IMG/VR virus record: IMGVR_UViG_3300036785_000223
Coordinates: 1-41,334 of that record
Source of the DNA: a virus
Strand: one strand, 5' to 3'
Length of the DNA: 41,334 nucleotides
The notes below the pieces were generated by a model. The model worked only from the letters and a program-made list of their open reading frames with translations. It did not search any database and was not told the origin of the DNA. Positions 6,319 to 21,279 of the stretch are shown in pieces. Both the position numbers and the translations under genes were made by a program. Within the stretch, counting starts at the first letter, position 1, and each line of letters opens with the position of its first letter.

Positions 6319-6670
6319 CGAACACGATCTAGAACCTGTCGATCACGATCCGTTTGCTGATCAAGGTCCGCAGACGCAACCGGTCGAGCATGATCCGTTC
6401 AACGGTCTGACGCCAGAGCTGAAAGGATTTTCGCCAGCGCAAGCGTTGGCAACGCTGGTGAAGATGGACGAGCGAATGCTGAACATGGAGATGGCAATAG
6501 CGCGGGCTGTCTTCGAAATCCGTGGCTCACTTGCTGGGATGGGTGCAAACGTGCAATCATTGCATCAATCACATGAGCAGTTACGGAGGACTGTTGCTGC
6601 GCCCAAGAAGATCGTGCGCGATGAGACTGGTCGACCAACGGGAGTAGTCGTTGACCAATCGTTTGCCTAA
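6311..6670 (+). CDS. Hypothetical protein with (D/E)HDPF repeat
   Basis: ATG 6311 starts inside the end of the previous gene (8-base overlap) and gives 119 residues. The acidic N-terminus has two copies of a HDPF unit about 17 residues apart (VDHDPFADQ, VEHDPFNGL). The middle (about 45-90) is helical and amphipathic. The end, KKIVRDETGRPTGVVVDQ, has the RDE-x-GR-x-x-GV pattern that I know from the C-termini of phage accessory proteins. Its function is unknown. Confidence 0.7.
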   Translation: MADEHDLEPVDHDPFADQGPQTQPVEHDPFNGLTPELKGFSPAQALATLVKMDERMLNMEMAIARAVFEIRGSLAGMGANVQSLHQSHEQLRRTVAAPKKIVRDETGRPTGVVVDQSFA

Positions 6671-6690
6671 GATCCTAGGAGGATAATTAG

Positions 6691-7173
6691 ATGGCAACCT
6701 ATCAGGTCAATGCTAACCAAGGCACGCTCTCGGGCACCGCAAAGGGCACGATGGCGCTGTGGACGGTAACCACGCTGCGTCGGCTCAAGATCTATGAGTT
6801 CGATATTGGCGCTGTGGGCGCTCCGACAACGACGGACTGTCAGTTCGTTATTGATTTGTCGCGCATAACCGGTACTTCATCGGTTACTGGGGCATCCTAT
6901 ACGCCGAACCCGACCGATCCTGCTGATGGCGCGGCGGCTGGCGTATCGCTGGTCAACATCACGGCTGAGATTTTGCCTGCCAATGTGTTGACGGGAACGC
7001 CGGAGTATCACAACGGCATCAACATGCGGAATACGGTGCGTTGGGTAGCGGCGCAGGAAAGCCAGTACTTCATTTCTCCGGCGACCGCGCTCAATGGCCA
7101 CTACATGTCGATCTTCTCAACGGCAGGCACTTACACTGCCGGTGTGTATACCAACGTCTACTATTTGGAATAA
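6691..7173 (+). CDS. Probable minor virion (decoration-type) protein
   Basis: This 160-residue protein is beta-rich and low in charge, made mainly of Thr, Ala, Gly and Val. A strong SD, TAGGAGG at 6676-6682, eight bases before the ATG, suggests high expression, as expected of a structural protein. The TLRRLKIYEFDIGAVGAPT segment and the YFISPATALNGHYMS region look like a compact beta sandwich. Composition and style resemble the protein encoded just after the major capsid gene (24135-24827). The assignment as decoration or minor capsid protein is an inference. Confidence 0.6.
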   Translation: MATYQVNANQGTLSGTAKGTMALWTVTTLRRLKIYEFDIGAVGAPTTTDCQFVIDLSRITGTSSVTGASYTPNPTDPADGAAAGVSLVNITAEILPANVLTGTPEYHNGINMRNTVRWVAAQESQYFISPATALNGHYMSIFSTAGTYTAGVYTNVYYLE

Positions 7174-7197
7174 GCCGGAACTGTCGGGAGGCGGTTC

Positions 7198-7968
7198 ATG
7201 CCCGAAACGGGCAATGTTCGGGCATTTGTGTTGGTAGCTTGCGAAGACGGGCCAATGATTGTCAACCGCCTGGACTACGAGGAAGTCCATGGCGGTTCCG
7301 GATCGGTTGGCGTTGGCACCTGGTTGCTCAACAGCGGTTATCACGAGATGCATGAGGTTGACGCGCTAATCAATCTCATGCGTGCGCGGATGAGCCATCG
7401 GGGCGGCCCGATCTCGGCAATCGACTGTGGCGCGAATGTGGGTCCGCACACTGTTCCGTTTGCGCATGCGCTGTTCGGGTGGGGCGAGGTCATTGCGATC
7501 GAAGCGCAGGAGCGGCTGTTTTACGCGCTTGCTGGCAACATCGCTCTGAACAATTTCTTTAATGCACGTGCGATCTGGGCGGCGGTGAGCGATCACTGCG
7601 GCGGGATGTTTGCGCCTGTCTTCGATTATCAGAAGCCGAAGCATTTCTCCGGTCAATCGATGAAGCAAGACGGAGGTCTGAAGCAGATGATCCCGACGTT
7701 GACGATCGACAGCCTCGGGCTTGAGCGCTGCGATCTCATTAAAATCGACATTGAGGGGATGGAGCCGTTTGCGTTGCGCGGTGCGGCGAAGACCATTGAG
7801 CGGTTTCGGCCGATTATTTCGGCTGAGCATACGACTTGCGGCAAGGAGCTGATCACAAGCAATCTGCCTGCCTATTATCGGTGCGAAGACTTCGGCATGA
7901 ACTTGCTGTGCATGGAAGTTGCTGATGTGCTTTGGCACATGGTGACTGTAAAGGATGCGGCGGAATGA
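7198..7968 (+). CDS. FkbM-family SAM-dependent methyltransferase
   Basis: FkbM-type enzymes O-methylate sugars and related small molecules using S-adenosylmethionine. The 256-residue protein has the glycine-rich SAM motif AIDCGANVGPHT (74-85), the acidic strand end VIAIEAQ (98-104) and the family hallmark DLIKIDIEGME (179-189). GGGAGG at 7186-7191 is six bases before the ATG. Its stop overlaps the start of the TPR-glycosyltransferase gene by four bases (ATGA), so the two are coexpressed and probably act on the same glycan. Targets could be virion glycoproteins or host surface sugars; the sequence does not decide. Confidence 0.9.
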   Translation: MPETGNVRAFVLVACEDGPMIVNRLDYEEVHGGSGSVGVGTWLLNSGYHEMHEVDALINLMRARMSHRGGPISAIDCGANVGPHTVPFAHALFGWGEVIAIEAQERLFYALAGNIALNNFFNARAIWAAVSDHCGGMFAPVFDYQKPKHFSGQSMKQDGGLKQMIPTLTIDSLGLERCDLIKIDIEGMEPFALRGAAKTIERFRPIISAEHTTCGKELITSNLPAYYRCEDFGMNLLCMEVADVLWHMVTVKDAAE

Positions 7969-9338
7969 GCGGGTTGTCGGAAAAGCTTTTAGAGCGGGCG
8001 CTTCTCTCGATCCGTGCCAAGAGCTTCGACCTGGCATTGAGCCAGCTCGCCGAGGCAATCAAATACGATCCAGAGTTGTATGAGGCCTGGATCCTGCGTG
8101 GGAATGTGCTCGCGGCGCAGGATAAGTATTTTGATGCGGCGTTGCATTTCAAGAGCGCGCTTGCGATCAATCCGGATGCCGTTGATGCGTTGACTAACGA
8201 GGCAAATGCGCTAGCCCACCTGGGGATGTTTAAGTCGGCGGAGGAGATTTTTCAACGGGCACTGCTTGTGCGGTCGTCCTGGGAGGCGCATTCGGGTTTG
8301 GCGGATCTCTACAGTTCGCAGATGAAGCTCGACAAGGCCGAGCATCACATGCGCTTGGCGCTGCAGCACGACAATACGGCTGATCGGCATTGGAACCTTG
8401 GAGCGGTTTTGCTCGGCCAGGGCAAGTGGGAGGAGGGGTGGCGGGAATACGCCTATCGCTGGAAAGACAACCCGCTACCGCCGCTGGCGTATAGGGCGCT
8501 TCCTCAATGGGAAGGTCAGCCATTGGATGGCAAGTCGATCGTGCTCTATCCCGAGCAAGGCTACGGGGACGAGATCCTGGGGCTCCGCTGGGGCGCTGCG
8601 GGCCTATTCCCGAACGCTCGACGGGTCTATGTCCAGGCTCGGGTGCCGATGTTGGAGCTGGCACGGTCCTTAAATACCCATGACTTCATTCCGCTGCATC
8701 GGCCTCTGCCTCGGGCTGACTACGGCTGTGCCTTGCTCGACGTGCCACGGATTTTGGGAACTCTTTCTGGCATTGAGGTGTCGAGTTGGCCTCATGCGGC
8801 CTATTTGCAGGCGCCTGTCCGGCGCATTGCGATGTGGAAGGATCGGCTGCCGAAGGGGTTCAATCTCGGGGTTTGCTGGATGAGCGGTGGGCACTTTTCG
8901 ACCACGCTGGCGATCCAGCGGGCGAAGAGCATTCCGGTCGACATGTTACGCGCGTTCAAGCAGCCTGGGGTTAACTTGATCAGTCTTCAGAAGCCAATCA
9001 TGGAGAAGGTTCCGCCAGAGCTTGAGCTGCTCGATATGATGGACGAGGTGGACGACTTTGCTGATACGGCGGCGCTGATTGAAGCGCTCGATCTGGTGGT
9101 CACGGTTGATACTGCGGTGGCGCATGTTGCCGGTGCGATCGGCAAGCGTGTGTTCAACCTGGTGCGCTTCAACGGCTACTGGCCATGGCTGTCACCGGAG
9201 GCAGCGGGAGATCCCTACAAGGCTATTTGGTATTCGTCGATGACGCTGTATCGTCAGCCGCGCATTGGTGATTGGCAGGCACCGGTTGAGCGTGCCGCGT
9301 TGGATCTGGGTAATCTGCGACAGTTGAGGACGCCATGA
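7965..9338 (+). CDS. TPR protein with GT-B glycosyltransferase-like C-terminal domain
   Basis: The protein has 457 residues from ATG 7965, inside the methyltransferase stop. Residues about 5-165 contain four to five tetratricopeptide repeats (for example AWILRGNVLAAQDKYFDAAL, NALAHLGMFKSAEEIFQRAL). Residues about 190-455 form a GT9/heptosyltransferase-like half: YPEQGYGDEI (195-204) matches the GEQGLGDEI-type motif, and DDFADTAALIEALDL...VTVDTAVAHVAGAIG (363-391) matches the nucleotide-sugar-binding end. Such TPR-GT proteins occur in bacterial and phage glycosylation loci. TPRs often bind protein substrates, so protein glycosylation is plausible. The donor and acceptor are unknown. Confidence 0.85.
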   Translation: MSGLSEKLLERALLSIRAKSFDLALSQLAEAIKYDPELYEAWILRGNVLAAQDKYFDAALHFKSALAINPDAVDALTNEANALAHLGMFKSAEEIFQRALLVRSSWEAHSGLADLYSSQMKLDKAEHHMRLALQHDNTADRHWNLGAVLLGQGKWEEGWREYAYRWKDNPLPPLAYRALPQWEGQPLDGKSIVLYPEQGYGDEILGLRWGAAGLFPNARRVYVQARVPMLELARSLNTHDFIPLHRPLPRADYGCALLDVPRILGTLSGIEVSSWPHAAYLQAPVRRIAMWKDRLPKGFNLGVCWMSGGHFSTTLAIQRAKSIPVDMLRAFKQPGVNLISLQKPIMEKVPPELELLDMMDEVDDFADTAALIEALDLVVTVDTAVAHVAGAIGKRVFNLVRFNGYWPWLSPEAAGDPYKAIWYSSMTLYRQPRIGDWQAPVERAALDLGNLRQLRTP

Positions 9339-9694
9339 AGACGGTGATTGTGAAAATCGGTGATGCTCCACCACCGCAAGTGGGCGATGTTTTCATTGTC
9401 AGCGTGGCATCGCTTCGTGGCGGGGGTCAGAGCAATTCGAGGTTTGATGTTCCTGAGGAGCATGACAGCATTCAAGTCGTTAACGGTAAGAAGATCGTGG
9501 TGAGCAGCAAGACGGCGGTTGCCGATGTGGTGGCTGGATTGATGCGGCAGACCGAAAAATATGGTCCTGGCTATCAGGCGCATCGGCGCAGCGATGATAC
9601 CTACATGATCATGTGCTCGGACGGGTGTGACCAGGTGCGGGTTTTGTCGTACGCGAGCGCTGGCCAGAAAATCGAGATCGAAGAGATTGGATAA
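9335..9694 (+). CDS. Hypothetical protein (119 aa)
   Basis: The start overlaps the TPR-glycosyltransferase stop (ATGA) and the stop overlaps the next start (TAATG). The 119-residue protein is beta-rich, beginning MKTVIVKIGDAPPPQVGDVF, with a GKKIVVSSKT segment and a YMIMCSDGCDQVRVLSYA strand pair. No enzyme motif is visible. It lies between the glycan-modification genes and a large virion gene, and its role is unknown. Confidence 0.68.
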   Translation: MKTVIVKIGDAPPPQVGDVFIVSVASLRGGGQSNSRFDVPEEHDSIQVVNGKKIVVSSKTAVADVVAGLMRQTEKYGPGYQAHRRSDDTYMIMCSDGCDQVRVLSYASAGQKIEIEEIG

Positions 9695-9975
9695 TGCCGC
9701 GATTAAGCTTGCAAGGTCCGCACGGCTATTACTGCGAGAGCGGTCCTGACGGGATCGTCGAGCACGACACCTATATGTGTCAGCACGGCGAAGGCGGGCA
9801 CATGGTGATCCAGAAGAAGGGAACCGTGCAGGCTTGGTGCAAACGCTGCATGGGCATGGTATGTGAATATCACGCGCAGTTCGGGGCGTGCAGCCCGCAA
9901 AATCCTAATCGAGAGCAGTGGCTCGAACAGATGGAAGCCAGGGAGAGGTTCCGTCGTGATTTGACTGGCGGGTGA
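9694..9975 (+). CDS. Small zinc-finger-like protein (93 aa)
   Basis: The protein has 93 residues. Cys and His are clustered: YYCESG, MCQHGEGGH, WCKRCMGMVC, then CEYHAQFGAC. Two CxxC or CxxH-like pairs around a beta turn suggest a treble-clef or ribbon-type zinc site. A charged helical tail follows (EQWLEQMEARERFRRDL). I know similar Cys/His-rich small proteins from phage late regions, without assigned function. The start overlaps the previous stop as TAATG. Confidence 0.68.
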   Translation: MPRLSLQGPHGYYCESGPDGIVEHDTYMCQHGEGGHMVIQKKGTVQAWCKRCMGMVCEYHAQFGACSPQNPNREQWLEQMEARERFRRDLTGG

Positions 9976-9981
9976 TCTCTC

Positions 9982-12426
9982 ATGGCGATGTTTCCTCGCC
10001 GCATTGTGGTCGGCAGCCACCAGGGCAAACCTGGTGGCGGGCTTACTGGTGGGTCGGGCGGCGGCGGCGGCGGCGGCGGATTTGGTGGCGGAGGGGTAGC
10101 AGGTCCGCCGGTCATAAATGGAACTCCGCAATTTGCTGCTACTTCGCCAAATGTCCCGACGATACCATCGGCTAACGCTGGTGATATGGTCATAGTCTAC
10201 ATCAGCCATGTGGGGCAGGTTGTAACTGGAATGAGTTCTCCAAATCTTCCATCCGGTGTTTGGACCAGATACGCCCGTAATCTTAAATTAGGCGATACGG
10301 GAGCATCCGAGTTTTGGTATGCCTTTGCCCCGCATTCTTTAGTGAATGAAACAATTACTCCGGCGGGTGGCGGCACGTTCTACAACATGCTGGCTTTTGT
10401 GGTCAGCAATGTGAACAACGCTTATCCATTTGATCCGTCGTACTATGCTTGGTATCCGGCGATGATGGGGCTAAATCCGCAAGACATGGCTATCCCCTAT
10501 ACTATTCGTGCTAACACGATGGTTATCAGTGGTACTCGATACAGTTCAACCACTAATCCGACTTCGGGCGCCGGTTGGACCCAACTTATTCCGATTGGTA
10601 GCGGTCAATCCATACTTGTTCAACAAAAGACCTTTACGTCTCCGCAAGCCGCTTCCTCGGTAATTCTCACGGGTACAGGCGTTAACGATATAAACGATGG
10701 CCTGTTCATGATTGTGACTTCGGATAGCAATGATCCGGCGGAAGTACCAATCCATGGTGGGCCGACGTATTTCAACGATAAGGGACTAACCAAAGCCGTT
10801 GCTGCTGGGTTTGATAGTCCAAGTTTCTTTCAAATTTCGTCATTCTTGGCAGATATTGAAACAGCTCCCAATGCTACGGCGTTCAAGAACCTTGGCTGGA
10901 ATATCATGTACGGTAGAACCGGGAACGATACAGATGCTAGTGCTGGTACTACTTCATTAAGTTTTATCAGGGGCCAAGGAGGTATTTACGTTTTTGAGAA
11001 CTTCCAGGGCAATTGGGTTGGTTTCGATAACACCGGGAGCGCGACCTACACGGTGCCCACACCACCAACCAATCAGACCTTCCAAGTCCCAAGTCATCCT
11101 TTGACGTCAACGATCGGTCCTGATGTTGGAACGAATATAGGCGCAGCTTTTGTCAGTGCCGGTATTGTCGTAGCGTCGATGAGCGGGACTGTTGTTAGTT
11201 ACACTATAAATGGTGGTGGGGCTGGGATCGATACGTTGGTCATCCACGTTACCGCAACTACTGGCAGTGGTTCGCATACAGGACTTTGGTGGTTTGGCAA
11301 TCCATATACGGACGGTTGGATACTGAATGGCAATGCGATGTCCTCGCAGATAGGCTCTGAGACCGTTGCGCTCATGTATCAGGACGAATTTGCTGGGGTG
11401 GACGAATTTGGTGTGACCCTTGCTTGGACCAACGCGGTTGATCGCCGTGTGGCCAATATGCCAAACACCTATTCTGACGGCCGTGCTTTCATTCTGCAGT
11501 TTGACGATAATTATGGAAGTAGAAAAGTCGGGAGTAATCTTGATGCCTACTTCCAACTTCAAGCTACGCAAGCCACCCCAAACACGACAGTTCGGTCTGA
11601 GGTCGATATATTTACCATCGATCAATATTTTATAACTCTGGGGAAGCAGAGCAACTTCATGGGAGCGGGTATTTATGGCGAAGAAGCTAACGCAGGAGGC
11701 GGCACGCTAACTCAAGACCAGTATACAAGAGGTTCGAACTACGGCGATACTATCGATCAGTTGGCTAACCTTCGATGTGGTCGTCCTGGGCCGGTCGGTG
11801 TAGCTATTGAAACCGGGGATGCCAAAACCAACGCTACTTTAGTTAGTCAGCTGATTACTCCGCCTGAGTATAATTGGGTGGTCTGGTCTACGATTATTCA
11901 TGGCGCGAGGCATCTTCTTAATTTTGATCACAATAATGGGCCTTCGCCATATGGTGGCAACGATTGCCTGATTACAAATTCTAACTTTGCTTCGCCGCTT
12001 CCTGGTCAAACTGTGTCGATGGTTTCGCAAGTAACCACTACCTGCAACATGGTGATTACTTACGCTCCGATCATCAATTCTCCGATTGTTGCTCAATACT
12101 GCCGAGCCTCTCCTGTCGGATATGTGGCTCCAACGCCGTTCATAAAACTCACGAATGGGATCGACGTCTGTGTCAAGCACTACACTGGCGGCGGCTCGTT
12201 CACAAACGGTTATTATATGTTCGTCACCACCCGTGGTGGGGAGACCTCTTGGGTTAGTACACTAGCTACTTTCACATTGAACTTCTTGGCTAGCGCAAGT
12301 TCTGCGACGTGTCTTTATGACAGTGAGGGCGTAGATACGGGAACTACATTCCCGATCACGTCTCGACAGTTCACGCACACTTTTCCACATCCGTGGACAG
12401 TTCGCATCTACAGGTTCAATCCCTAA
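9982..12426 (+). CDS. Large tail-associated protein: Gly linker, beta-sandwich, glycosidase-like TIM-barrel region
   Basis: The protein has 814 residues. An N-terminal peptide (1-18) is followed by a poly-Gly linker, GGSGGGGGGGGFGGGG (about 23-38), encoded by seven GGC codons in a row. Residues about 44-250 form a beta-sandwich module (AGDMVIVYISHVG ... FWYAFAPHSLVNETITPAGG) like those of the following genes. From about 260 the protein looks like an alpha/beta-barrel glycoside-hydrolase-like domain: FFQISSFLADIETAP, EFGVTLAW, YGDTIDQLANL, PVGVAIETG and, most telling, VVWSTIIHGARHLLNFDH (about 631-648). A beta C-terminal domain follows. A depolymerase-like host-glycan enzyme is an inference. 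The gene looks more AT-rich than its neighbours. Confidence 0.68.
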   Translation: MAMFPRRIVVGSHQGKPGGGLTGGSGGGGGGGGFGGGGVAGPPVINGTPQFAATSPNVPTIPSANAGDMVIVYISHVGQVVTGMSSPNLPSGVWTRYARNLKLGDTGASEFWYAFAPHSLVNETITPAGGGTFYNMLAFVVSNVNNAYPFDPSYYAWYPAMMGLNPQDMAIPYTIRANTMVISGTRYSSTTNPTSGAGWTQLIPIGSGQSILVQQKTFTSPQAASSVILTGTGVNDINDGLFMIVTSDSNDPAEVPIHGGPTYFNDKGLTKAVAAGFDSPSFFQISSFLADIETAPNATAFKNLGWNIMYGRTGNDTDASAGTTSLSFIRGQGGIYVFENFQGNWVGFDNTGSATYTVPTPPTNQTFQVPSHPLTSTIGPDVGTNIGAAFVSAGIVVASMSGTVVSYTINGGGAGIDTLVIHVTATTGSGSHTGLWWFGNPYTDGWILNGNAMSSQIGSETVALMYQDEFAGVDEFGVTLAWTNAVDRRVANMPNTYSDGRAFILQFDDNYGSRKVGSNLDAYFQLQATQATPNTTVRSEVDIFTIDQYFITLGKQSNFMGAGIYGEEANAGGGTLTQDQYTRGSNYGDTIDQLANLRCGRPGPVGVAIETGDAKTNATLVSQLITPPEYNWVVWSTIIHGARHLLNFDHNNGPSPYGGNDCLITNSNFASPLPGQTVSMVSQVTTTCNMVITYAPIINSPIVAQYCRASPVGYVAPTPFIKLTNGIDVCVKHYTGGGSFTNGYYMFVTTRGGETSWVSTLATFTLNFLASASSATCLYDSEGVDTGTTFPITSRQFTHTFPHPWTVRIYRFNP

Positions 12427-13709
12427 TGCCTACGACAATCTTTACCGCGACGCTCAGCGGATCGAGCACCGGCAATCAGACCAACAGCACGCGTAATGTG
12501 CTGCATCTGACTGGCGATACCCAAGGTCAGATCCGAGTAACATTTCAGGCAGGACCGTCTGCTAGCTGGAAAGTAACGCATGCGGCCTTTCAGCAATCCT
12601 CCGATGGATTTGGCAGCACTAGCAGTGCTGGATATCTTTTCCAGGAATTATTCTTTGGCGGATCATCTGGATTTAATCTGTCGACGGGTCAGTCTATCAC
12701 CAGTGATTGGCTTCCGGCTTGGCAAAGACAGGATGGAACCGGCGGGGGTAATAGATGCGTTATCGTTACCGATGACGATACGGCTGGTAATGGTGACGGT
12801 GGCAATATTGCGCTAGCAACCGGTGTATCTGGCGCTCAGCCTTATAATGCTGCAGCGACCTCTAGCTACAATGCAGCTAATCCCGGCGGCTTCACTTCAG
12901 GTACGGCCGGGCAAGTATTTGGTATTTCGAAGATTGAGACGCAGGGACCGACGCGCTCGGTCACGTTAAATTGGGTTCAATGGAGCGGTCCTCAAGGTAC
13001 TCCAATCAATTCGGTGACGCTAACACCGGGAACGCCTCCTCTGGGATATGGCAATGGCGGCGGGACAATAGCTTCAGGGGATCTGCTGATAGCCGTGATG
13101 TCGTGGGGAGACCAAACTCAGACTGGCATAGATGCAGGAGTTATTGTTCCGCCGAGCGGGTGGACCAGTTTTGGACAGGTTTCAACCGGGGTTTCCGAAA
13201 ATATGCGTGCCGGGTTTTTCTATAAGATTGCCGGTCCAAGCGAGCCCAGCTCCTATACGTTTACGGTTACGACTGCCGAGACTGCCGCCTATGCTTGGGC
13301 GGGCTATTCGGGTGCTTCGATAGATGCATTCGCGGCAGTGCTCGATAATGTGGGATCTGGCACTTCCTTGGCTCCCAGTGTTAGTCCAACAAATGCGAAT
13401 GATCTGTTGGTTTGCTTCTTTGCTGCTACAACCGCTCAAGCAAGCGGCTGGCCTACGAGTATGTACGTCGACGTGTCTCCACAAAACTCATTTTCCGCGA
13501 ACGTCTCGCAGGCGTATGTTGCTTTTGCTGAGCAACCACTTTCGTCCAGCGGTGCGACTGGGACGAGGGCGGTAAACTTTATCAGTGCGCGCCGAACTTA
13601 TATGCTGTCGGTAGCTTTGTCGGCTCCCTCCGGTCCTGGTCCTTCGCAGGGCGCGTTCGGAAGTAGCGGTCCCGGTATTATTCAAAGAACTCGAATGATC
13701 GGAGCTTGA
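12426..13709 (+). CDS. Two-domain beta-rich virion protein
   Basis: ATG 12426 overlaps the previous stop (TAATG) and gives 427 residues. Domain 1 (about 1-185) is a virion-type beta domain with GQIRVTFQAGPSASWKVTHAAF. Domain 2 (about 190-410) is the jelly-roll or sandwich type with SGDLLIAVMSWGD, VPPSGWTSFGQV, AGFFYKIAGPSEPSSYTFTV and AYAWAGYSGASIDAF. It ends in GPGIIQRTRMIGA, which resembles half of the repeat unit in the 963-residue protein downstream. I read it as a tail or surface protein; the exact place in the virion is unknown. Confidence 0.72.
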   Translation: MPTTIFTATLSGSSTGNQTNSTRNVLHLTGDTQGQIRVTFQAGPSASWKVTHAAFQQSSDGFGSTSSAGYLFQELFFGGSSGFNLSTGQSITSDWLPAWQRQDGTGGGNRCVIVTDDDTAGNGDGGNIALATGVSGAQPYNAAATSSYNAANPGGFTSGTAGQVFGISKIETQGPTRSVTLNWVQWSGPQGTPINSVTLTPGTPPLGYGNGGGTIASGDLLIAVMSWGDQTQTGIDAGVIVPPSGWTSFGQVSTGVSENMRAGFFYKIAGPSEPSSYTFTVTTAETAAYAWAGYSGASIDAFAAVLDNVGSGTSLAPSVSPTNANDLLVCFFAATTAQASGWPTSMYVDVSPQNSFSANVSQAYVAFAEQPLSSSGATGTRAVNFISARRTYMLSVALSAPSGPGPSQGAFGSSGPGIIQRTRMIGA

Positions 13710-13710
13710 G

Positions 13711-14076
13711 ATGTCATCCTCCGGCGTTATCATCTCGTCGAGGATCATCGAGCTGAGCGGCAAGTTCCCGTTCGCGCCACCGTCAAAGCCTGCAGCAGCA
13801 CCCTCGGTCTTCGCCTGGGCTGGGCGTTATCCATTCGCGCATGTGTTCTACCGGGTACTTGAGCACGGATACGGCAATGCATTGTTCGATAAGCCGAAGC
13901 CGCCCACACCGAACATGACATGGGCGGAGCAGCCGATTGCGATGCTGCGATTTGCGGTGATGTCGCTTCCGTCAGTTGCGCCGCAGCCGCCGCCAGCAGC
14001 TCCGCCGCCAGTTCCGATGAAGAAGACTGCGGTTTCTGATACGGTTGTTCGGCGTACAGTGATAGCCGGAACATGA
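13711..14076 (+). CDS. Dwarf repeat-unit protein (121 aa), Pro/Ala-rich
   Basis: ATG 13711 has GGAG at 13701-13704. The 121 residues divide into three to four units like those of the 963-residue protein: SVFAWAGRYPFAHVFYRVLE resembles its SLAFSGWPFPAYYRSVDE units, MTWAEQPIAMLRFAVMSL resembles its FSEPxxxxIKPR units, and the tail AVSDTVVRRTVIAGT resembles SASDVVTPQTVLSQG. Linkers are PPAAPPPVP-like. No known family is recognised. The match suggests a common origin and a shared structural role with the repeat protein. Confidence 0.68.
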   Translation: MSSSGVIISSRIIELSGKFPFAPPSKPAAAPSVFAWAGRYPFAHVFYRVLEHGYGNALFDKPKPPTPNMTWAEQPIAMLRFAVMSLPSVAPQPPPAAPPPVPMKKTAVSDTVVRRTVIAGT

Positions 14077-14085
14077 GGATCCGTC

Positions 14086-14655
14086 ATGTCTGCACAAACT
14101 TGGGTTGAAACTTTAACAACGGCGCAGGTTGATGGGCCGACGTTGTCGGCGTTTACGGCGGCGACGACGCTCCTGCCATCGGCTGCTATCTACACGTTCC
14201 CGGCGAACTACTTCTACATCGGCAGGCGCATTCACGTTAAGGCGTCGGGCCGCATCTCGACGTTCACTTCCGGTACCTTCACGGTCACCTTCACGCTCGG
14301 AACATTAGCGACGCCGATCACCGTAGCGCCCGGTACTGCTGGATCCCCGATGAATATGCTGGCCTCGCAGACCAATACGGCTTGGCAGCTTGATCTCGAC
14401 ATGACGTGCAGAGCGATTGGGGCTGGCCCGTCATCCACTATCCTTGGCATTGCTGTTTTCACATCTAATGCATTGGCCGGTTCAACTGGGGGTGCGCAGG
14501 CGACGTCCTATGTGTTGCCGACAGCAGCTCCAGCTGTAGGATCAGTGTTTGATAGCACGCTGACGCAGACGGCCAATTTGTTCATAGGCTGCTCGGTCTC
14601 GAATGCAGCGAATGGTATTACCCTGCATCAGTATTCCTTGGAGAGTTACAATTAA
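14086..14655 (+). CDS. Beta-rich virion protein (189 aa)
   Basis: SD GAGGAT at 14075-14080 precedes the ATG. The 189-residue protein is rich in Thr, Ala, Ser and Gly, with strand-like segments: NYFYIGRRIHVKASGRISTF, TFTVTFTLGTLATPI, WQLDLDMTCRAIG and a TANLFIGCSVSNAANGITL end. I recognise this pattern (grow the mean, R-I-H-V-K-x-x-G, then a length-regular beta series) from virion proteins of other phages but cannot name it. It is probably a head or tail surface protein. Confidence 0.68.
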   Translation: MSAQTWVETLTTAQVDGPTLSAFTAATTLLPSAAIYTFPANYFYIGRRIHVKASGRISTFTSGTFTVTFTLGTLATPITVAPGTAGSPMNMLASQTNTAWQLDLDMTCRAIGAGPSSTILGIAVFTSNALAGSTGGAQATSYVLPTAAPAVGSVFDSTLTQTANLFIGCSVSNAANGITLHQYSLESYN

Positions 14656-14664
14656 GGATATGAC

Positions 14665-14841
14665 GTGGCCTCTCCTCCCGGTCGCATATTTGTTCCAGGC
14701 AAAGGGCCTGCCAAGGCCTTGAAGACGACGCAGGCATTTCCGCCGAACCCGCAGACCCCGGCAACGCTAGTCTTCTCGTCTAATAGCGATGTCGAAAAGT
14801 TGCTGACTTTGACCGTGATCGCTGTTGGCAATCAGCAATGA
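14665..14841 (+). CDS. Dwarf GTG-start protein (58 aa), single repeat unit
   Basis: This frame starts at GTG 14665 with AAGGA at 14654-14658 and runs 58 codons to a TGA that overlaps the next gene's ATG (ATGA at 14838). It fills the otherwise empty 182-base gap between two virion genes exactly. The protein starts MASPPGRIFVPGKGP and ends TPATLVFSSNSDVEKLLTLT plus VIAVGNQQ. That ending resembles one unit of the 963-residue protein (IPATLAAYIVSDVTIPQLVL and so on). The alternative ATG at 14660 in another frame gives only about 20 codons. Confidence 0.62.
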   Translation: MASPPGRIFVPGKGPAKALKTTQAFPPNPQTPATLVFSSNSDVEKLLTLTVIAVGNQQ

Positions 14842-15530
14842 CTGTGATCTTGGATGCTAAGGCAGCAGCGGTAACTCTTGCACCGGGCGTAAACACGATA
14901 GCATCTTCCAATTTGACGATTGGAACCGGGAATTGCTTGGTCGCTACTTTTTTTAATAATGCTGTCGCTGCTGTGTTCCCCGTCTTTACGTCGATTACTT
15001 GGGGATCACAGAATTTGAATTTGATCCCGGATATCAGCCAGGAGGCAGGATCAGCTGGATCTGGTCTTGGCGTTGTTGCTATGTGGGTTTTGATGAACCC
15101 GACGCCTGGCGTGCAGACACTGACATTTACCTGGTCTGGCGGTGCGCAGCTTGGGGAAATCTATTCGGCTTCGTTCAACAACGTCGGAGGATTTGTTGTT
15201 GATAACGTCTCAAGTGCTGGGACGACGGCTTCCTATCTCGAAGCAAGCGGTTCTGGGCATCTTATCGTGGATGCGATCCAAAATACCAGCCAGAATATAA
15301 CTGGCAGCTCAGGGGTGGGGCAGACGCAGCTTGTTGTTGATAATACGTCGGTTCATTTCGGACAGAGCTATATTGCGAACCAAACCTCGCCGCACTTTTT
15401 TTGGACATTTGCGGCATCAGCATCGTGGTCAGCTGTTACGGTTGATCTCTTTCCTCAACCTGGGCCTTCTGCACTATCGTTTGAGGGCAGTCCGGTGATG
15501 AAGCGGCAGTTCGGCGTGATTAATACGTAG
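14838..15530 (+). CDS. Beta-sandwich virion protein, paralogue 1
   Basis: This 230-residue protein overlaps the dwarf gene's stop (ATGA). It shares with the next gene the blocks SSNLTIGxGNCLV, FTSITWGSQNLNL, MNPxPGxQTLTFxWxG and GVGQTQLxxDN, in the same order and spacing. The DNA is also similar in these blocks, so this is a tandem duplication. The fold is probably the beta-sandwich type seen in domain 2 of the 12426-13709 product. The C-terminal tail SPVMKRQFGVINT matches the tail type of its neighbours. A surface or fibre role is inferred. Confidence 0.75.
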   Translation: MTVILDAKAAAVTLAPGVNTIASSNLTIGTGNCLVATFFNNAVAAVFPVFTSITWGSQNLNLIPDISQEAGSAGSGLGVVAMWVLMNPTPGVQTLTFTWSGGAQLGEIYSASFNNVGGFVVDNVSSAGTTASYLEASGSGHLIVDAIQNTSQNITGSSGVGQTQLVVDNTSVHFGQSYIANQTSPHFFWTFAASASWSAVTVDLFPQPGPSALSFEGSPVMKRQFGVINT

Positions 15531-15540
15531 GAATTGTGAA

Positions 15541-16212
15541 ATGGCTGTAACATTTGATGCCAATGCAACGGCTGTAACCACAGGCAGTAGCGTGACGACG
15601 ATATCGTCTTCCAACCTGACGATTGGATCCGGGAATTGTTTGGTTGTGAGTTTTATTACCAGTCCTTCCATCGCACTTCCTCCTTTCACGTCGATCACTT
15701 GGGGATCGCAGAACTTGAATTTAACTCCTAACGTATTGCAGGCGGCGCCTGGAGCTAGTTCAGGCATTGTTGGAATGTGGATTTTCTTAAATCCTGTGTC
15801 CGGAACTCAAACGCTGACCTTTAATTGGACTGGGACGCGTTTTGTGGACATCTATTCGTCTTCCTATAACGGGGTGGGTGGTTTTAGTACCTCATCTGCT
15901 TCTGGTACTAGCGCGGCCCCATCCTATTCCATTACTAGTGGCGCTGGCCATTTTGCGGTCGATGCCGTTCAGGGTGGGAACACGTCCGTGATTGGTTCTG
16001 GAGTTGGTCAAACGCAACTCGCGCTGGACAATTCTTTGATTGCGATGGGACAGAGCTATATTTCGAACCAGCCGACTGCTTCGTTCAGTTGGACACTTAG
16101 TCCATCAACGAACTGGTCGGCGGTCCTGGCGGATCTTGTCCCAGTGTCTATGACGGCTGGCCTTGCCACTGGCGAGGCGGTTGTTCAATCGTTCCGAACG
16201 CTGAGCTACTGA
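15541..16212 (+). CDS. Beta-sandwich virion protein, paralogue 2
   Basis: SD AGGAA at 15529-15533 precedes this 223-residue protein. It is the tandem copy of the gene just upstream: SSNLTIGSGNCLV, FTSITWGSQNLNL, GTQTLTFNWTG and GVGQTQLALDN align without large gaps, while loop regions differ strongly. Conserved core strands with variable loops would suit a binding protein under diversifying selection, which is an inference. The tail GEAVVQSFRTLSY again resembles a half repeat unit. Confidence 0.75.
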   Translation: MAVTFDANATAVTTGSSVTTISSSNLTIGSGNCLVVSFITSPSIALPPFTSITWGSQNLNLTPNVLQAAPGASSGIVGMWIFLNPVSGTQTLTFNWTGTRFVDIYSSSYNGVGGFSTSSASGTSAAPSYSITSGAGHFAVDAVQGGNTSVIGSGVGQTQLALDNSLIAMGQSYISNQPTASFSWTLSPSTNWSAVLADLVPVSMTAGLATGEAVVQSFRTLSY

Positions 16213-16225
16213 AGTGAGGTGATGC

Positions 16226-16921
16226 ATGAGCGCGGGATTTGTTCAGGGACAACTGTCTCAGCTTAGCTTTACCTCGGTTACAAGTTTTAGTTTTGGCTTA
16301 GGCATGTCGTCGGGTGGCGTGGTTGGCGGTGCTGATCATATGCTGGTTGCTTGTATCTGCTGGCTTTTTGATCCTAGCTCTTCATCACCAGCGACGTGGG
16401 ATGGGGTTAGCATGGATTTTGTGACCACCAGCGTCAATACGAATGGGTCCAATTCTTGGATGCGGATATTTGCACTACGCAATCCTAACGCTGGTAATTT
16501 GCTGCTCAATCTTAATTGGACAAACAGCTCTACTGGTTTGGTATTTGCGGCTGAATTTAGCGGGATAAGTGGATGGCGTAATTTTACGAGCGCTTCACCT
16601 ATCGGTACGTCGAGCGGGGGGGTTACCCAAATTACTTCGCCGGGAGACATTGCGGTTGCTATGTTGATGCTAGAGAGCGCGGCGATCAATTCTCGTACCC
16701 AATCCCTGATTTTTCCAGGGTCTCTCGGTGGCTATTTTATGGAACTGGAATACGGCGTTGCTGCGCCTGGAACCACCTTCACGACGTTCTCCAATACTTT
16801 TAGCGGGTCCACGAATGGGTTGTATGGGGCAGTGGATCTTCAACAAGTCTTAATAACTCCAGGTCTCCAGAGCGGGGGCGGAGGGGGTGTGCGTAAGTCT
16901 TTTAAGACGGTGACCTACTAA
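16226..16921 (+). CDS. Beta-sandwich virion protein, diverged paralogue 3
   Basis: GAGGT at 16216-16220 precedes the ATG. The 231-residue protein keeps the general plan of the two upstream paralogues (DHMLVACICWLF, PATWDGVSMDFV, NPNAGNLLLNLNWTNSSTG, a GDIAVAMLM strand and a closing YGAVDLQQ strand) but little exact identity. It ends GGGGGVRKSFKTVTY, a tail like those of the neighbouring proteins after a poly-Gly linker. The next gene starts one base after its stop. It probably belongs to the same surface structure. Confidence 0.7.
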   Translation: MSAGFVQGQLSQLSFTSVTSFSFGLGMSSGGVVGGADHMLVACICWLFDPSSSSPATWDGVSMDFVTTSVNTNGSNSWMRIFALRNPNAGNLLLNLNWTNSSTGLVFAAEFSGISGWRNFTSASPIGTSSGGVTQITSPGDIAVAMLMLESAAINSRTQSLIFPGSLGGYFMELEYGVAAPGTTFTTFSNTFSGSTNGLYGAVDLQQVLITPGLQSGGGGGVRKSFKTVTY

Positions 16922-19813
16922 ATGCAGCGTAAGTTTATCTATCAAGCTGTAGCTAACGTCATTCCGCCGGTTGCGGCGGCGCTGACCGTTGTGACAGCGA
17001 TGTCACCCGACATCGTTGTAACGCGCAATGTTATCTATCAGACGAATGCTTGGGTGCCGGGCCCGCCTCCTCCGCCACCGCCAACAATCGCATCTTATTC
17101 TGCATCGGATGTTGTTACTCCGCAGACGGTGCTGAGCCAAGGAAACGGGTTTGTTGCGGCACCAGCAGCGGCGATTGTCCCCTCGACGTTAGCAACTTCG
17201 TCATCTTCGATTGTTGTCGCTCAGCGAACGGTGCTCAATCAGACCGTTGCTGCGGTGCCGACCCCACCGTTTGCACCGATTACGGCAATGGGTGGGGTCT
17301 CGACCGAGATCATCGTTCGCAGCTGGGTTATTAACCAGACTGTTGCTGCGGCGCCGACGCTACCGTCAGCGCCGCCGATTACATCGATTTTTGCTCCTTC
17401 CCCTGAACGGCAGATAAGGGCGAGGTCTATACCTTTCGACGGATTTGTCTTTGCGCCTCCGGCGCAGACCTGGAGCTTTACGGGCGATCAGCCGCGTTTG
17501 GTTACGGTCAGGCTGAAGATCGGCCAGGACGGATTTATCGGCGCGCCGTTTGTGACGGTGACCGCGCTGTTCTCGCCGTCTGACCTGATCAGAAGATTGC
17601 CACGGCAGCTGCTACAGGATGGCTTTGTCTCGTCTGTGACGGCAGCGGCGGCAACGCCATCAGTATTTGGGTTCTCTGATAGTCCGGCAGCAATTATCAA
17701 GCCGAAGTCTCAGCCGAGCGATCCCTTTATTTCGCAAGCAGCGGCGGTCATTGTAACGCCATCTGCGTTGGCATTCTCTGAACCGCAGTTCGCACGCATT
17801 AAGCCGAGGCCGGTGGAATATCCGACTGCGGCGCCTCTGTTCCCGTCAGTCACGCCTTGGGGTTGGGCCAGCGATCAGTTGTTTGCTCGTCAGCTGTCGC
17901 ATCCACCGCAATTTGCTGATGGATTTGTCTCGCTGCAAGTGACGTTCACGCCTTCGGCGCTTTCGTTCTCGGAGCCGCCATGGACTTTGATCAAGCCGAA
18001 GGCGCGTGAATATCCAGCCTGGGCGCCGTTCTTCCCTCCGACTGGCGCGGTAACGCCATCGAGTTTTGGGTTTAGCGAACATCCGATATCCGTCACACGG
18101 CCGCGAGCGCGTGAATATCCGGCCTTTGCGCCCGCTGTGCCGCCCGTCGTAATTCCGCCGACGCTCGCGTCCTATGTGACCAGCGTTGTTGTAGTTCCAC
18201 GGGTCGTGTTGAACCAAATAACCGGTTTTGTGCCACCGTCTCCGGCTGCAATTCCAGCGACCTTAGCTGCCTATATTGTTAGCGATGTCACTATTCCGCA
18301 GCTGGTGCTGAACCAGGCAAATGGGTTTGTGGCTGTTCCGACAGTAGCGGTCACCACACCATCAAGCTTTTCATTTGTTGATCAAGTCACCACGCATCTC
18401 GGCACGACGGTGCTGTTGATGGAAATTCCGTTTGCGTTAATTCCGCCCGTTGCTACGCCCAGTTCACTAGCGTTTAGCGGGTGGCCATTCCCCGCCTATT
18501 ATCGCAGTGTTGATGAACGACAGCCGCCGCTTGGCTTCTTCTTGCCACCGGGGGCGGTGACAACGCCGTCGAATTTTGCATTCAGTGAGCAGTCTTCTGG
18601 GCATCAGGTTGTCAGTGTGATGCTGACTGATGTTCCGTTCGGGCTAATCGTGCCGACCGTAACGCCGGGACCGTTAGTGTTTAGCGGATGGCCATTTCCG
18701 GCCTATTACCGTGTCGTCGAGGAACACCAGCCACCACTTGGCTTCTTTCTTCCGCCGGGGGCGGCAGTAACTCCGTCGGCGTTCCAGTTCAGCGAACCGG
18801 TTACCGAGCATCAGATCGTCAGCGTGATGCTGACGGATGTGCCGTTTGCGTTTATTCCGCCTGCGCCAACTTCAACGACGTTCCCATGGAGCGCGCAGCC
18901 CGAAGTTATTATCAGACCGAAAGCGCTGGAATATCCAACCAACGCGCCTACGCTTCCGCCGGGCGTTACTATTACGGCGACGTTTTATTCGTGGAGCGCA
19001 TCGCCTGAACTGATCAAAAAGCCGACGCCGTTACTTGCTCCCGACGTCGCGTTCCGGTTGCCGCCTACGCCAATCAATATTTGGGCTTGGAGCGCATCCC
19101 CTGAGCGGATTATTCGGCCGCGACCATTATTGACGCCGTCGGCGGATATTTCGTTTCAGCTGGTGACGCTGGCTCCTTCGTTCTATCCCTGGAGCCCGTC
19201 GCCGGAATTACTCATTCGGCCTAAGCCGCGTGAGTATCCAAGCTACACACCACAAGCGTTCCCGCCCTTCTCGTTTTATCCGTGGAGCGCGTCGCCGGAA
19301 TTAATCATTCGGCCGCGACCGCTGCTAACTCCGGCTGCTGACTTCCAGTTTGTGCCGCCAGCTGCGACGGCGGCGTTCTACCCTTGGAGCCCATCACCCG
19401 AGCGGATCATCAGGCCGCATCCACTGCTGACGCCCGATGTTCTCTATGCGCTTGCGTTCCGGATACCGTTAGTCACTACGCCGTCGTTGTGGCCCTGGAG
19501 CCAATCGCCGGATCCACGGCTTAAATATTGGTTCAACGTTGCGTTGTTGCCGCAGCCGTTTGTGTTCCTGCCGCCATTGCCGCCGCCGGTAGTTGTTGTT
19601 CGACCGGTGTCGCAGGTTGGAACCGGTGGCACGGGTTACGGTAGTCGCACGGTCGGCATGCGCACTGGGCGCATGCATTTGCCGATGAACCTCGGGCGCG
19701 AGGAGATGATGCGATTGATTGTTTCACTGCCGCTGGAAGAACAGGCAGCAATGATGCAGGAACTAGATGATGAGGAGGTTGCTTGGCTGTTAGCAAACCT
19801 TGGTGATATATGA
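16922..19813 (+). CDS. 963-aa protein of about 26 tandem units (Pro/Ser/Thr/aromatic-rich)
   Basis: The protein consists almost entirely of units of about 30-36 residues. A unit has an aromatic strand ([FWY]xFSxxP), a basic strand (xxIIRPRxL or VVxPQTVLNQ), a hydrophobic stretch (GFV, PFAF or AAPxFP) and a TPS/PPT linker. Early units read SDVVTPQTVLSQGNGFVAAP; late ones WSxSPExIIRPRPLLTP. Between 18365 and 18871 the DNA repeats with a 207-base (69-codon) period. Residues from about 890 are a Gly linker (VGTGGTGYGS) and a charged helical cap (LGREEMMRLIVSLPLEEQAA and on). There is no signal peptide, transmembrane segment or cysteine. No family is recognised; a beta-type fibre is likely. Confidence 0.78.
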   Translation: MQRKFIYQAVANVIPPVAAALTVVTAMSPDIVVTRNVIYQTNAWVPGPPPPPPPTIASYSASDVVTPQTVLSQGNGFVAAPAAAIVPSTLATSSSSIVVAQRTVLNQTVAAVPTPPFAPITAMGGVSTEIIVRSWVINQTVAAAPTLPSAPPITSIFAPSPERQIRARSIPFDGFVFAPPAQTWSFTGDQPRLVTVRLKIGQDGFIGAPFVTVTALFSPSDLIRRLPRQLLQDGFVSSVTAAAATPSVFGFSDSPAAIIKPKSQPSDPFISQAAAVIVTPSALAFSEPQFARIKPRPVEYPTAAPLFPSVTPWGWASDQLFARQLSHPPQFADGFVSLQVTFTPSALSFSEPPWTLIKPKAREYPAWAPFFPPTGAVTPSSFGFSEHPISVTRPRAREYPAFAPAVPPVVIPPTLASYVTSVVVVPRVVLNQITGFVPPSPAAIPATLAAYIVSDVTIPQLVLNQANGFVAVPTVAVTTPSSFSFVDQVTTHLGTTVLLMEIPFALIPPVATPSSLAFSGWPFPAYYRSVDERQPPLGFFLPPGAVTTPSNFAFSEQSSGHQVVSVMLTDVPFGLIVPTVTPGPLVFSGWPFPAYYRVVEEHQPPLGFFLPPGAAVTPSAFQFSEPVTEHQIVSVMLTDVPFAFIPPAPTSTTFPWSAQPEVIIRPKALEYPTNAPTLPPGVTITATFYSWSASPELIKKPTPLLAPDVAFRLPPTPINIWAWSASPERIIRPRPLLTPSADISFQLVTLAPSFYPWSPSPELLIRPKPREYPSYTPQAFPPFSFYPWSASPELIIRPRPLLTPAADFQFVPPAATAAFYPWSPSPERIIRPHPLLTPDVLYALAFRIPLVTTPSLWPWSQSPDPRLKYWFNVALLPQPFVFLPPLPPPVVVVRPVSQVGTGGTGYGSRTVGMRTGRMHLPMNLGREEMMRLIVSLPLEEQAAMMQELDDEEVAWLLANLGDI
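18365..18871 (+). repeat. 207-bp in-frame tandem duplication, 2.4 copies
   Basis: Copy 1 starts at 18365, copy 2 at 18572 and a partial copy 3 at 18779. Each full copy encodes two structural units (69 residues), with shared words such as FSGWPFPAYYR, QPPLGFFLPPGA and VSVMLTDVPF. The DNA is clearly similar between copies, whereas most other units of the gene are only similar as protein. This marks the most recent expansion in the gene. Confidence 0.8.
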
Positions 19814-19829: not shown

Positions 19830-20147
19830 ATGGTGGTGAACATGGCTGATGCGATGCGGAGGAACCTGCAGCGCTTTGTCGAGCAGGACCTGGCGGGCGT
19901 CGTGCGGTGGGACGAAGTGCACGTTCGCGTTCCTGCATCTGGCGAGGGAGAAGTTGTCGAGATTGAGTTCGATGTTGGTCCCGAACATTATCTCGTCGCA
20001 GTCTCGTCCTCAGATGCCAAGCCGCCACTGGGTGAGGTCGCCGTGAACCTGGTTGCGCGCGGTCCGATCGATGAAGGTGTTTGGAGAAACATTGCCGAGC
20101 AGATCAAGGCGATTGCCGCCAGAACTGCGGGAGACTTGAATGGCTAA
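19830..20147 (+). CDS. Hypothetical protein (105 aa)
   Basis: Three in-frame starts exist (19800, 19830, 19842). ATG 19830 is favoured because it lies outside the previous gene and has GAGGG at 19821-19825. The 105-residue protein looks alpha/beta: a helix NMADAMRRNLQRFVEQDL, strands VHVRVPA and VVEIEFDVG, then a C-terminal helix NIAEQIKAIAARTAGDL. It ends inside the start of the scaffold-like gene (8-base overlap). Its function is unknown. Confidence 0.62.
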   Translation: MVVNMADAMRRNLQRFVEQDLAGVVRWDEVHVRVPASGEGEVVEIEFDVGPEHYLVAVSSSDAKPPLGEVAVNLVARGPIDEGVWRNIAEQIKAIAARTAGDLNG

Positions 20148-21279
20148 AGACGACGCGCTGGGGCTGCTGGGCGAAGCCTTAACCCCGGAAGAGCAGAAGT
20201 ACCTGGACAGCCGTGGTGAGACGGAGCTGCCGCCAGAGCCTCCTGCGCCTGCTCCCGAGCCTCCGGTAGCTCCGAAGGCTGAAACTGCACCAGCGAGCAC
20301 GCCTGCCCCGGAGCCGACCCCTCCGGAGGAGGAGGAAGACGACACCCCGGAGCCGATAGACCCCAAAACCGGCAAGCAGCCGCCGAGAAGGGTGCCCTAT
20401 CGTAAGTTTAAGGCGCTGGAAGACCAGCTCACCTCTAAAAACCAGGAGTTCGAGACCACCCGAGCCAGGGTGCAGGAACTGGAGCAAACGATGGCGCGTG
20501 CCGACGAGCGCATGCGCATCATCAATGAGGCCTTGGCGGAGCCCAGTCCTGCGCAGGCGCAAGCCGAGGAGGAGGATCCACGGCCGGATCCGCGCGAGGA
20601 CGTGTTCGCCTACATGGAATGGCAGGAGCGCCAGACCGGACGACTGTTCGAACGCTTCAACGAGCAGATCGAGGGACTGTCCAACCGGCAGGAAGAGGCG
20701 GATCAGTATGCGCAGGTCAGTTCGGAACAGGCACAGCTTGAAAACCAATACCGGCGGGATGCCGGGGCTTATGCGGCGACCAACACCAAGTTTGTTCCGG
20801 CTTACACCTACCTGATGAACATGCGCGATCGGCAGTACACGACGCTCGGTATTAGAGATCCGAACGAGCGGATGGCGCGTATTGTCAATGAAGAGCGCGA
20901 GATCATGCATTCGGCTTACGCCGAAAGGGTCAACCCGGCGCAGCGGATCTATGAGCTGGCGCTGGCTTCAGGATTTAATCCAGACGCGGCACCGGCTGTT
21001 GCAGGAAACGGTGCCCCGGCAGCGGGCTCCTCTGCGCCTGCTGCTGCCGCAGCCCCGGCCTCGGCCCCTGCAGCTCATGCCGGGGCTGCTCCTAACGTAG
21101 CGGCGGAGATCGAGGCGGTGCGTAGAGGGCAGGCAGCAGCGCAGAGCTTGAGCCACGGCGGCGGCGTGCCGCCTGACCAGCTCACGCCCGACATGCTTGG
21201 CAATATGAGCGATGAGGACTTCCAGCATGTGATGAACCGGCTGTCGAAGTCGCGGCAGCGGGAGTTGTTGGGCGGATGA
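20140..21279 (+). CDS. Scaffold-like protein
   Basis: A scaffold directs assembly of the coat protein into a procapsid and then leaves. This 379-residue protein is acidic, Pro/Glu-rich at 30-75 (EEEEDDTPEP) and helical or coiled-coil at about 83-135 and 165-210. It is Ala-rich near 285-315 and ends in a conserved-looking helical segment (LTPDMLGNMSDEDFQHVMNRLS then a basic LSKSRQRELLGG tail). A basic helical end is the coat-binding part in P22-type scaffolds. Its position before the major capsid gene supports the call, but three to five small genes lie between them. Confidence 0.75.
   Translation: MAKDDALGLLGEALTPEEQKYLDSRGETELPPEPPAPAPEPPVAPKAETAPASTPAPEPTPPEEEEDDTPEPIDPKTGKQPPRRVPYRKFKALEDQLTSKNQEFETTRARVQELEQTMARADERMRIINEALAEPSPAQAQAEEEDPRPDPREDVFAYMEWQERQTGRLFERFNEQIEGLSNRQEEADQYAQVSSEQAQLENQYRRDAGAYAATNTKFVPAYTYLMNMRDRQYTTLGIRDPNERMARIVNEEREIMHSAYAERVNPAQRIYELALASGFNPDAAPAVAGNGAPAAGSSAPAAAAAPASAPAAHAGAAPNVAAEIEAVRRGQAAAQSLSHGGGVPPDQLTPDMLGNMSDEDFQHVMNRLSKSRQRELLGG

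What the first reader, a model, noticed from the sequence alone, without database searches (positions are those of the whole stretch)
12426..19813. The repeat unit of the long protein appears as single copies in the tails or bodies of its neighbours
Consecutive products end in short, similar tails: IIQRTRMIGA, VVRRTVIAGT, DVEKLLTLTVIAVGNQQ, VMKRQFGVINT, VVQSFRTLSY and VRKSFKTVTY. The units of the 963-residue protein contain VVTRNVIYQT, VVTPQTVLSQ and VVAQRTVLNQ, and that protein itself starts MQRKFIYQA. The 121- and 58-residue proteins consist of little else than such units. A common strand-like tag could let these proteins add to one another by strand exchange, or reflect repeated duplication and break-up of one fibre gene. 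The similarity is short, so chance must be excluded.
Basis: partly seen in the sequence, partly recalled or inferred. Interest (0 to 1): 0.8.

Follow-up and report, generated by a model that had tools for sequence, protein, structure and literature searches.

The report
Split phage adhesin genes, similar tails
A soil-type phage carries a block of co-translated surface-protein genes whose products end in short, similar peptides next to a long proline-rich repeat protein; related phages fuse the same parts into one protein, so this looks like a broken-up modular adhesin, and the peptides may be docking tags whose function is still untested.

Summary
The six tails exist where stated and resemble one another more than chance allows (p about 0.001 against 1,297 other phage-ORF C-termini; p 0.0002 against the phage's own other proteins). 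The 121- and 58-residue proteins do contain units of the 963-residue protein. The stronger claim, that every tail is one unit, holds only weakly for 230 and 427 and not for 223 and 231.

What is there: three tandem copies of a beta-sandwich domain of the phage minor-tail-protein type (230, 223, 231 aa), each followed by a disordered linker and a short basic tail. Beside them lie unit-only ORFs and a 963-aa array of proline-rich units. Most genes are translationally coupled; 231 and 963 share a frame across TAA-ATG. Related phages fuse sandwich and repeats in one polypeptide, so the window is a split modular adhesin. The phenomenon recurs elsewhere: in contig L178, four neighbouring proteins share a different tail (LMGQxW-like, p<0.0002).

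By-product: a tag, (E/D)W(I/L)IRARRRGRR, is the exact C-terminus of about 24 otherwise unrelated phage proteins, one per contig. No genuine case was found in 84,980 bacterial and archaeal genomes. Docking, strand exchange and glycosylation remain untested.

The parts
7198..7968 (+). FkbM-type methyltransferase, upstream in the same run of genes
   Evidence: Pfam PF05050 E=3.8e-17
7932..9338 (+). TPR + glycosyltransferase-9 (heptosyltransferase-like) protein; homologues lie near the tail clusters of L178 and L179
   Evidence: Pfam TPR and PF01075; phmmer E 3e-49 and 9e-34
9982..12426 (+). 814-aa protein, C-terminus PWTVRIYRFNP; stop overlaps the next start (TAATG)
   Evidence: no family hit
12426..13709 (+). 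427-aa beta-rich protein, tail PSQGAFGSSGPGIIQRTRMIGA at 13641-13706
   Evidence: PSSM p=0.024
13711..14076 (+). 121-aa, proline-rich; contains units of the 963-aa protein; tail VVRRTVIAGT
   Evidence: p<0.002
14086..14655 (+). 189-aa protein within the block, without such a tail; resembles by eye a protein next to a tagged repeat protein in L146
14665..14841 (+). 58-aa, about one and a half units; TGA overlaps ATG of the next gene
   Evidence: p=0.011
14838..15530 (+). 230-aa: beta-sandwich (1-206) + disordered linker + tail PSALSFEGSPVMKRQFGVINT at 15465-15527
   Evidence: AlphaFold; fold search; PSSM p=0.0016
15541..16212 (+). 223-aa paralogue (about 50% identical to 230), tail VVQSFRTLSY
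16226..16921 (+). 231-aa paralogue (about 20% identical), GGGGG linker, tail VRKSFKTVTY; same frame as 963
16922..19813 (+). 963-aa array of about 26 proline-rich units (16% Pro) + C-terminal 3-helix domain; starts at the ATG abutting the TAA of 231
   Evidence: partial homologue in L006 at the same place

Best explanation
The block is a split, duplicated form of a modular phage surface (adhesin-like) gene. Heads: three tandem beta-sandwich proteins of the minor-tail-protein type (230, 223, 231 aa) and probably the 427-aa protein. Stalk/tether: the 963-aa array of proline-rich units, with short offcuts of it in the 121- and 58-aa ORFs. Shown: paralogy of the heads, units in 121 and 58, mutual similarity of the tails, stop/start junctions typical of coupling, and fusion of head and repeats into one polypeptide in relatives. 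Inferred: the proteins sit on the virion. The sandwich heads meet the host surface, the array is an extended flexible spacer, and each head's linker plus short basic tail is what is left of the junction to the repeats and serves as a non-covalent docking peptide that brings the separately made heads to a common partner (the array or a virion site). Coupled translation would supply the parts together. The helical C-terminus of 963 would be the anchor. Likelihood: about 0.8 for 'split modular head + repeat gene'; about 0.4 for 'tails dock the heads'.
For: Head domain family: an HMM from 230/223/231 finds L022 (1.6e-12), L045 (8e-14, two copies) and L133 (1.4e-6) in the first round. PHROG 553 'minor tail protein' hits the L133 722-aa protein (4.4e-7) and L178 218 aa (3.2e-12). 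Foldseek against viral models gives mycobacteriophage minor tail proteins, E down to 4e-8, TMq about 0.6-0.7. Fused arrangements in L133, L045, L178-777, L180. TAA-ATG in frame for 231/963; ATGA, TAATG and TGAGATG junctions elsewhere. Tail lies outside the fold. Tail statistics. Recurrence: L178 ORFs 65/218/353/206 aa share tails SIPLMGQICL, GALMPQIWM, TITLMGQAWI, SPAILLGQRLL (p<2e-4, z=6.8; the 206-aa body matches other families than the heads and is joined by GGGGGS), and 65 and 353 carry units of the 777-aa neighbour. L155: the tail of the 374-aa polyglycine protein matches a unit of the 122-aa neighbour (p=0.007, shuffle <1/300).
Against: Tails of 223 and 231 show no unit similarity. The 223/231 tail match (p=0.0012) may be plain paralogy. 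L022 has the head without a tail. Window units are not recognisable by sequence in the repeats of other phages except weakly in L006, so the parallel with the fused proteins is homologous for the heads and only architectural for the repeats. Virion location is inferred from gene position and fold only. The PDB fold search gave nothing significant. The AlphaFold model is of medium quality (mean pLDDT 66), and the 963 half modelled alone is mostly unfolded.
Confidence: 0.55

Rival explanations
1. The tails have no shared function. They are the left-over C-termini of tandem duplicates and of a broken repeat array, similar by descent and by being short, basic and beta-prone.
For: 223/231 carry the best tail match and are paralogues. 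Near-neighbour ORFs in general show a 1.1-3-fold excess of similar tails, many of which look like duplicated domains. Tail-unit similarity fails for 223 and 231. L022 lacks a tail.
Against: Bodies and tails disagree: 230 and 223 are 50% identical with unlike tails, while 231 is only about 20% identical to 230 yet has a tail like that of 223. In L178 a protein with a different body (206 aa) shares the tail of its neighbours.
Confidence: 0.25
2. The tails are recognition or modification sites for the TPR-glycosyltransferase (and FkbM methyltransferase) encoded just upstream, so that heads and repeats are glycosylated on the virion.
For: TPR + Glyco_transf_9 and FkbM genes precede the block in the same run of genes. 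Homologues of this glycosyltransferase lie within about 5 kb of the stand-alone sandwich+tail proteins in L178 and L179, and elsewhere among the held loci only in L026/L030 and L005. Glycans at C-termini of mycobacteriophage capsid and tail-tube proteins are reported (PMC12619734, citing Freeman et al. 2023, which I could not read).
Against: Only three phages support the co-occurrence. No common acceptor motif is visible across window, L178 and L179 tails. Glycosyltransferases can act on other targets.
Confidence: 0.13
3. Strand exchange: tails are donor strands that complete a unit or sandwich of the next protein, giving a non-covalent fibre.
For: Tails mix hydrophobic and basic residues in a strand-like way, follow flexible linkers (GGGGG in 231, disordered in the 230 model), and the 963-aa protein itself starts with a strand-like segment.
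Against: The sandwich is predicted with 15 strands and no obvious gap. Repeats model as disordered without partners. No complex prediction was possible with the tools.
Confidence: 0.07

Closest known systems
Phage minor tail proteins of the PHROG 553 type (Mycobacterium/Gordonia phages)
   Same: Beta-sandwich head: viral fold matches with E down to 4e-8 for the window's 230-aa protein and direct PHROG 553 hits for its relatives in L133 and L178
   Different: Window proteins themselves give no PHROG or Pfam hit; here they sit in a podovirus-like genome between portal and scaffold, with linker, basic tail and a separate proline-rich array
Fused sandwich-repeat proteins of related uncultivated phages (L133, L045, L178 777 aa)
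   Same: Same head family followed by many proline-rich repeats
   Different: One polypeptide instead of several ORFs; repeat sequences not recognisably homologous to the window's; L133 ends in the EWIIRARRR tag
Domain mosaicism of receptor-binding and tail proteins (PMC10684548)
   Same: Reuse and reshuffling of domains among phage surface proteins, receptor-binding proteins being among the most active classes
   Different: That work describes N-terminal anchors and whole domains; here a short C-terminal peptide is the shared element and the domain order is reversed
Cargo-loading or docking peptides (encapsulins, carboxysomes; from general knowledge)
   Same: Short terminal peptide after a flexible linker on otherwise unrelated proteins
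   Different: No partner is known here and binding was not tested

Membership tests
Phage minor tail protein (PHROG 553 type) | Sequence match to the PHROG profile | tested here: not met
   No PHROG hit at E<=0.1 for the window proteins; met only for the relatives L133 and L178 218 aa
Phage minor tail protein (PHROG 553 type) | Same sandwich fold / homology through intermediates | tested here: met
   HMM of 230/223/231 finds L133 at 1.4e-6, which hits PHROG 553; viral Foldseek hits to minor tail proteins
Phage minor tail protein (PHROG 553 type) | Located in the virion tail | not testable with these tools
   Gene position between portal and scaffold/MCP only
Donor-strand-complemented fibre (chaperone-usher type) | Head fold lacking one strand, completed by a neighbour's strand | tested here: inconclusive
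   15 strands and disordered tail in a monomer model with mean pLDDT 66; no complex prediction available
Tandem unit array with single-copy neighbours | 121 and 58 contain units of 963 above chance | tested here: met
   (p<0.002 and 0.011)
Tandem unit array with single-copy neighbours | Tails of 427, 230, 223, 231 are units | tested here: inconclusive
   230 p=0.0016 and 427 p=0.024 by PSSM; 223 and 231 not significant; plain alignments not significant
EWIIRARRRGRR C-terminal tag proteins | C-terminal W(I/L)(I/V)RARRR within the last 11 residues | tested here: not met
   No window protein has it; nearest is PWTVRIYRFNP of the 814-aa protein

The most novel reading that the evidence does not exclude
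Phages of this wider group mark surface-type proteins with a short C-terminal peptide that is docked (or modified) by a common partner. In some genomes a phage-specific peptide is shared by several consecutive, partly unrelated proteins (window; L178 LMGQxW; perhaps L155). In many others one conserved peptide, (E/D)W(I/L)IRARRRGRR, ends exactly one protein per contig whose body varies completely. This would be a C-terminal anchoring system for interchangeable adhesins, the reverse of the usual N-terminal anchor.
Probability: 0.3. Interest if true: 0.75.

Novelty: new variant of a known kind. Interest (0 to 1): 0.5.

Why it matters
If the tails dock, phages would have a simple way to swap or add adhesin heads: any domain ending in the right peptide joins the virion. 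That would explain how unrelated bodies come to share a C-terminus and would be directly testable by binding assays. Even without docking, the locus shows head, spacer and tail of one fibre-like gene turning into separate coupled genes. The EWIIRARRRGRR signature is a practical marker for finding such proteins in uncultivated phages where no profile library names them.

Tried and rejected
Pfam and PHROGs on all block proteins: no hit. tblastn of 963, 230, 231, 427 and 814 against isolate phages: no match. Viral scans with 230 alone, with 230/223/231, and with the 963 C-terminal domain: no relatives; an alignment led by the L045 and L133 heads did find six loci. HMM of late 963 units against 14,885 ORFs: nothing above reversed decoys outside 963 (L006 scores 8.1, within the decoy range), so the idea that units, RARRR tags and other phages' repeats are one sequence family was dropped. 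The visual likeness of SEWIIRARRR to SPELIIRPRP is at noise level. Genome-contig scan for the tag: three matches, none at the end of a plausible gene. PDB fold search: nothing below E 0.001. AlphaFold of the 963 C-terminal half: only the terminal helices are confident. Literature searches for the tag string and for shared C-terminal tags on phage structural proteins found nothing.

Full report
Setting. The window is a 41,334-base IMG/VR virus record. It holds a podovirus-like structural module: terminase fragment 113-1105, portal 3803-6130 (PHROG 156), scaffold-like 20140-21279, major capsid protein 22967-24073 (54% identical to Rhizobium phage RHph_Y1_10), then further virion genes, a tail-fibre-like gene at 38760 and an endolysin. 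Several relatives (L009, L013, L014, L015) have the portal followed at once, or after one or two small genes, by the homologue of the 115-aa gene and the scaffold. Here about 13 kb are inserted between them (6251-19813), and the finding lies in the second half of that insert.

Observation. I tested the claim in three ways. (a) Tail against tail: the mean pairwise score of the six tails is 13.0; random sets of six C-termini of other phage ORFs give 8.3 +/- 1.0 (p=0.0012), shuffles p=0.0006, and the phage's own other proteins p=0.0002. Leaving out paralogous pairs gives p=0.003-0.017 against real C-termini. (b) Units: the 121- and 58-aa proteins contain units of the 963-aa protein (p<0.002 and 0.011). 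(c) Tail against unit: only weakly supported for 230 (p=0.0016) and 427 (p=0.024) with a two-block profile that I aligned by hand, and absent for 223 and 231; plain alignments show nothing for these four. The tails are also where many of the few basic residues of 230 and 231 sit. So 'similar tails' and 'unit-only ORFs' are real; 'all tails are units' is not shown.

What the heads are. 230, 223 and 231 are tandem paralogues (about 50% and 20% identity to the first). AlphaFold with seven homologues gives a beta-sandwich for residues 1-206 and an unstructured end, 211-230, pLDDT 38-39. The fold matches predicted minor tail proteins of mycobacteriophages. The profile of the three proteins finds homologues in L022, L045 and L133 and, through these, in L178, L179 and L180. 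Two of these match PHROG 553, minor tail protein. The 963-aa protein is a proline-rich array (16% Pro) ending in a predicted helical domain; a partial homologue of that end is found only in L006 at the same position.

Why 'broken-up'. In L133 the head, many proline-rich repeats and a C-terminal tag form one 722-aa ORF. In L045 two heads, separated by one short proline-rich stretch, precede about ten repeats in a 938-aa ORF. In L178 a head and repeats form a 777-aa ORF beside smaller head and unit ORFs. In the window, 231 ends TAC TAA and 963 starts with the very next codon, ATG, in the same frame; 814/427 and 58/230 overlap by stop and start, and 427/121 are one base apart. The simplest reading is that the window carries the split form of such a gene after head duplication. 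Translation coupling is read from the sequence; actual re-initiation is not shown.

Recurrence. L178 (contig 3300020021_000031) is the best parallel. ORFs of 65, 218, 353 and 206 aa end in SIPLMGQICL, GALMPQIWM, TITLMGQAWI and SPAILLGQRLL (group p<2e-4, z 6.8). The 65- and 353-aa proteins carry units of the 777-aa neighbour, while 218 and 206 share only the tail. The 206-aa body matches other PHROG families than the heads do and is joined by GGGGGS. So a shared tail and shared units are two separable features. L155 shows a third case, weaker: tails THRFLYRRPWR, KVWRVYVTRPRR, VYEWIIRARRRHRR (p=0.017; first tail against a unit of the 122-aa neighbour p=0.007). A scan of neighbouring ORFs in all loci found an excess of similar tails, much of which looks like tandem duplication, so this alone does not prove a tag.

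A conserved tag in other phages. Two degenerate DNA patterns that did not demand a stop codon found the peptide W(I/L)(I/V)RARRR in viral contigs. 12 of 18 stretches with the first pattern and 25 of 26 with the second end at the same distance from a stop codon, that is, exactly at a C-terminus. About 24 distinct sequences are listed, with varied synonymous codons, so selection is on the peptide. Bodies include laminin-G-like, polyglycine, proline-, alanine- or acid-rich repeats and very short ORFs. There is exactly one match per contig in each of 14 contigs that contain the pattern (one of these, G036, is the off-register match), and no genuine case in 84,980 bacterial and archaeal genomes, searched with a pattern that did require the stop. 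The window has no such protein. Sequence tests do not link this tag to the window's units or tails; the parallel is one of anatomy.

Mechanism. Best-supported: a modular adhesin-like gene split into coupled head, offcut and array genes. The tails would be the remnants of the head-repeat junction and plausibly docking peptides. Steps shown: paralogy, head family, coupling signals, fused relatives, tail similarity. Steps inferred: virion location, receptor contact, docking. Rivals are ordinary descent without function, recognition or modification by the TPR-glycosyltransferase that precedes the block, and strand exchange. For the second, glycans on C-termini of mycobacteriophage virion proteins are reported (PMC12619734 citing Freeman et al. 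2023), but the link here is only gene proximity in three phages.

Known context. Reshuffling of domains in receptor-binding proteins is well documented (PMC10684548). What differs here is that the shared element is a short C-terminal peptide and that the head is N-terminal. I found no description of the RARRR tag, but that search covers open-access papers only and matches exact strings.

Limits. No isolate carries close homologues, contigs are mostly fragments, the unit alignment was made by hand after seeing the tails, the null C-termini come from unannotated ORFs and so include some that are not genes, and no complex prediction was available.

Noticed in passing
L131-L137, L140, L144, L151, L152, L155-L163, L009, L015/L053, L059, L062, L086 (C-termini listed): C-terminal peptide (E/D)W(I/L)IRARRRGRR on about 24 otherwise unrelated phage proteins, one per contig, varied codons, no genuine case among 84,980 bacterial and archaeal genomes.
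   Followed up: partly
window 7198-9338: FkbM methyltransferase and TPR-glycosyltransferase-9 genes precede the adhesin block; glycosyltransferase homologues lie near the tail clusters in L178 and L179.
   Followed up: partly
window 34069-35067 and 35071-36036; also L007 8292-10489: Two neighbouring proteins share another C-terminal pattern (AIFMDGKWYYPD / MIFRGGQWQPLQ), also seen in the corresponding pair of L007.
   Followed up: no
window 16913-16924: 231-aa gene and 963-aa gene are in the same frame with TAA directly followed by ATG and no clear Shine-Dalgarno; re-initiation or read-through possible.
   Followed up: no
L086 9983-12591: The portal gene end (HHKDAFPPQPKQTAPA) is repeated at the end of the overlapping next 101-aa ORF, which itself contains a 33-residue repeat.
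   Followed up: no
L155 5663-7744: 693-aa array of very basic repeats (NLSWKKPAYLRPKIKRARLFISLQ) between a polyglycine protein and a tagged protein.
   Followed up: partly
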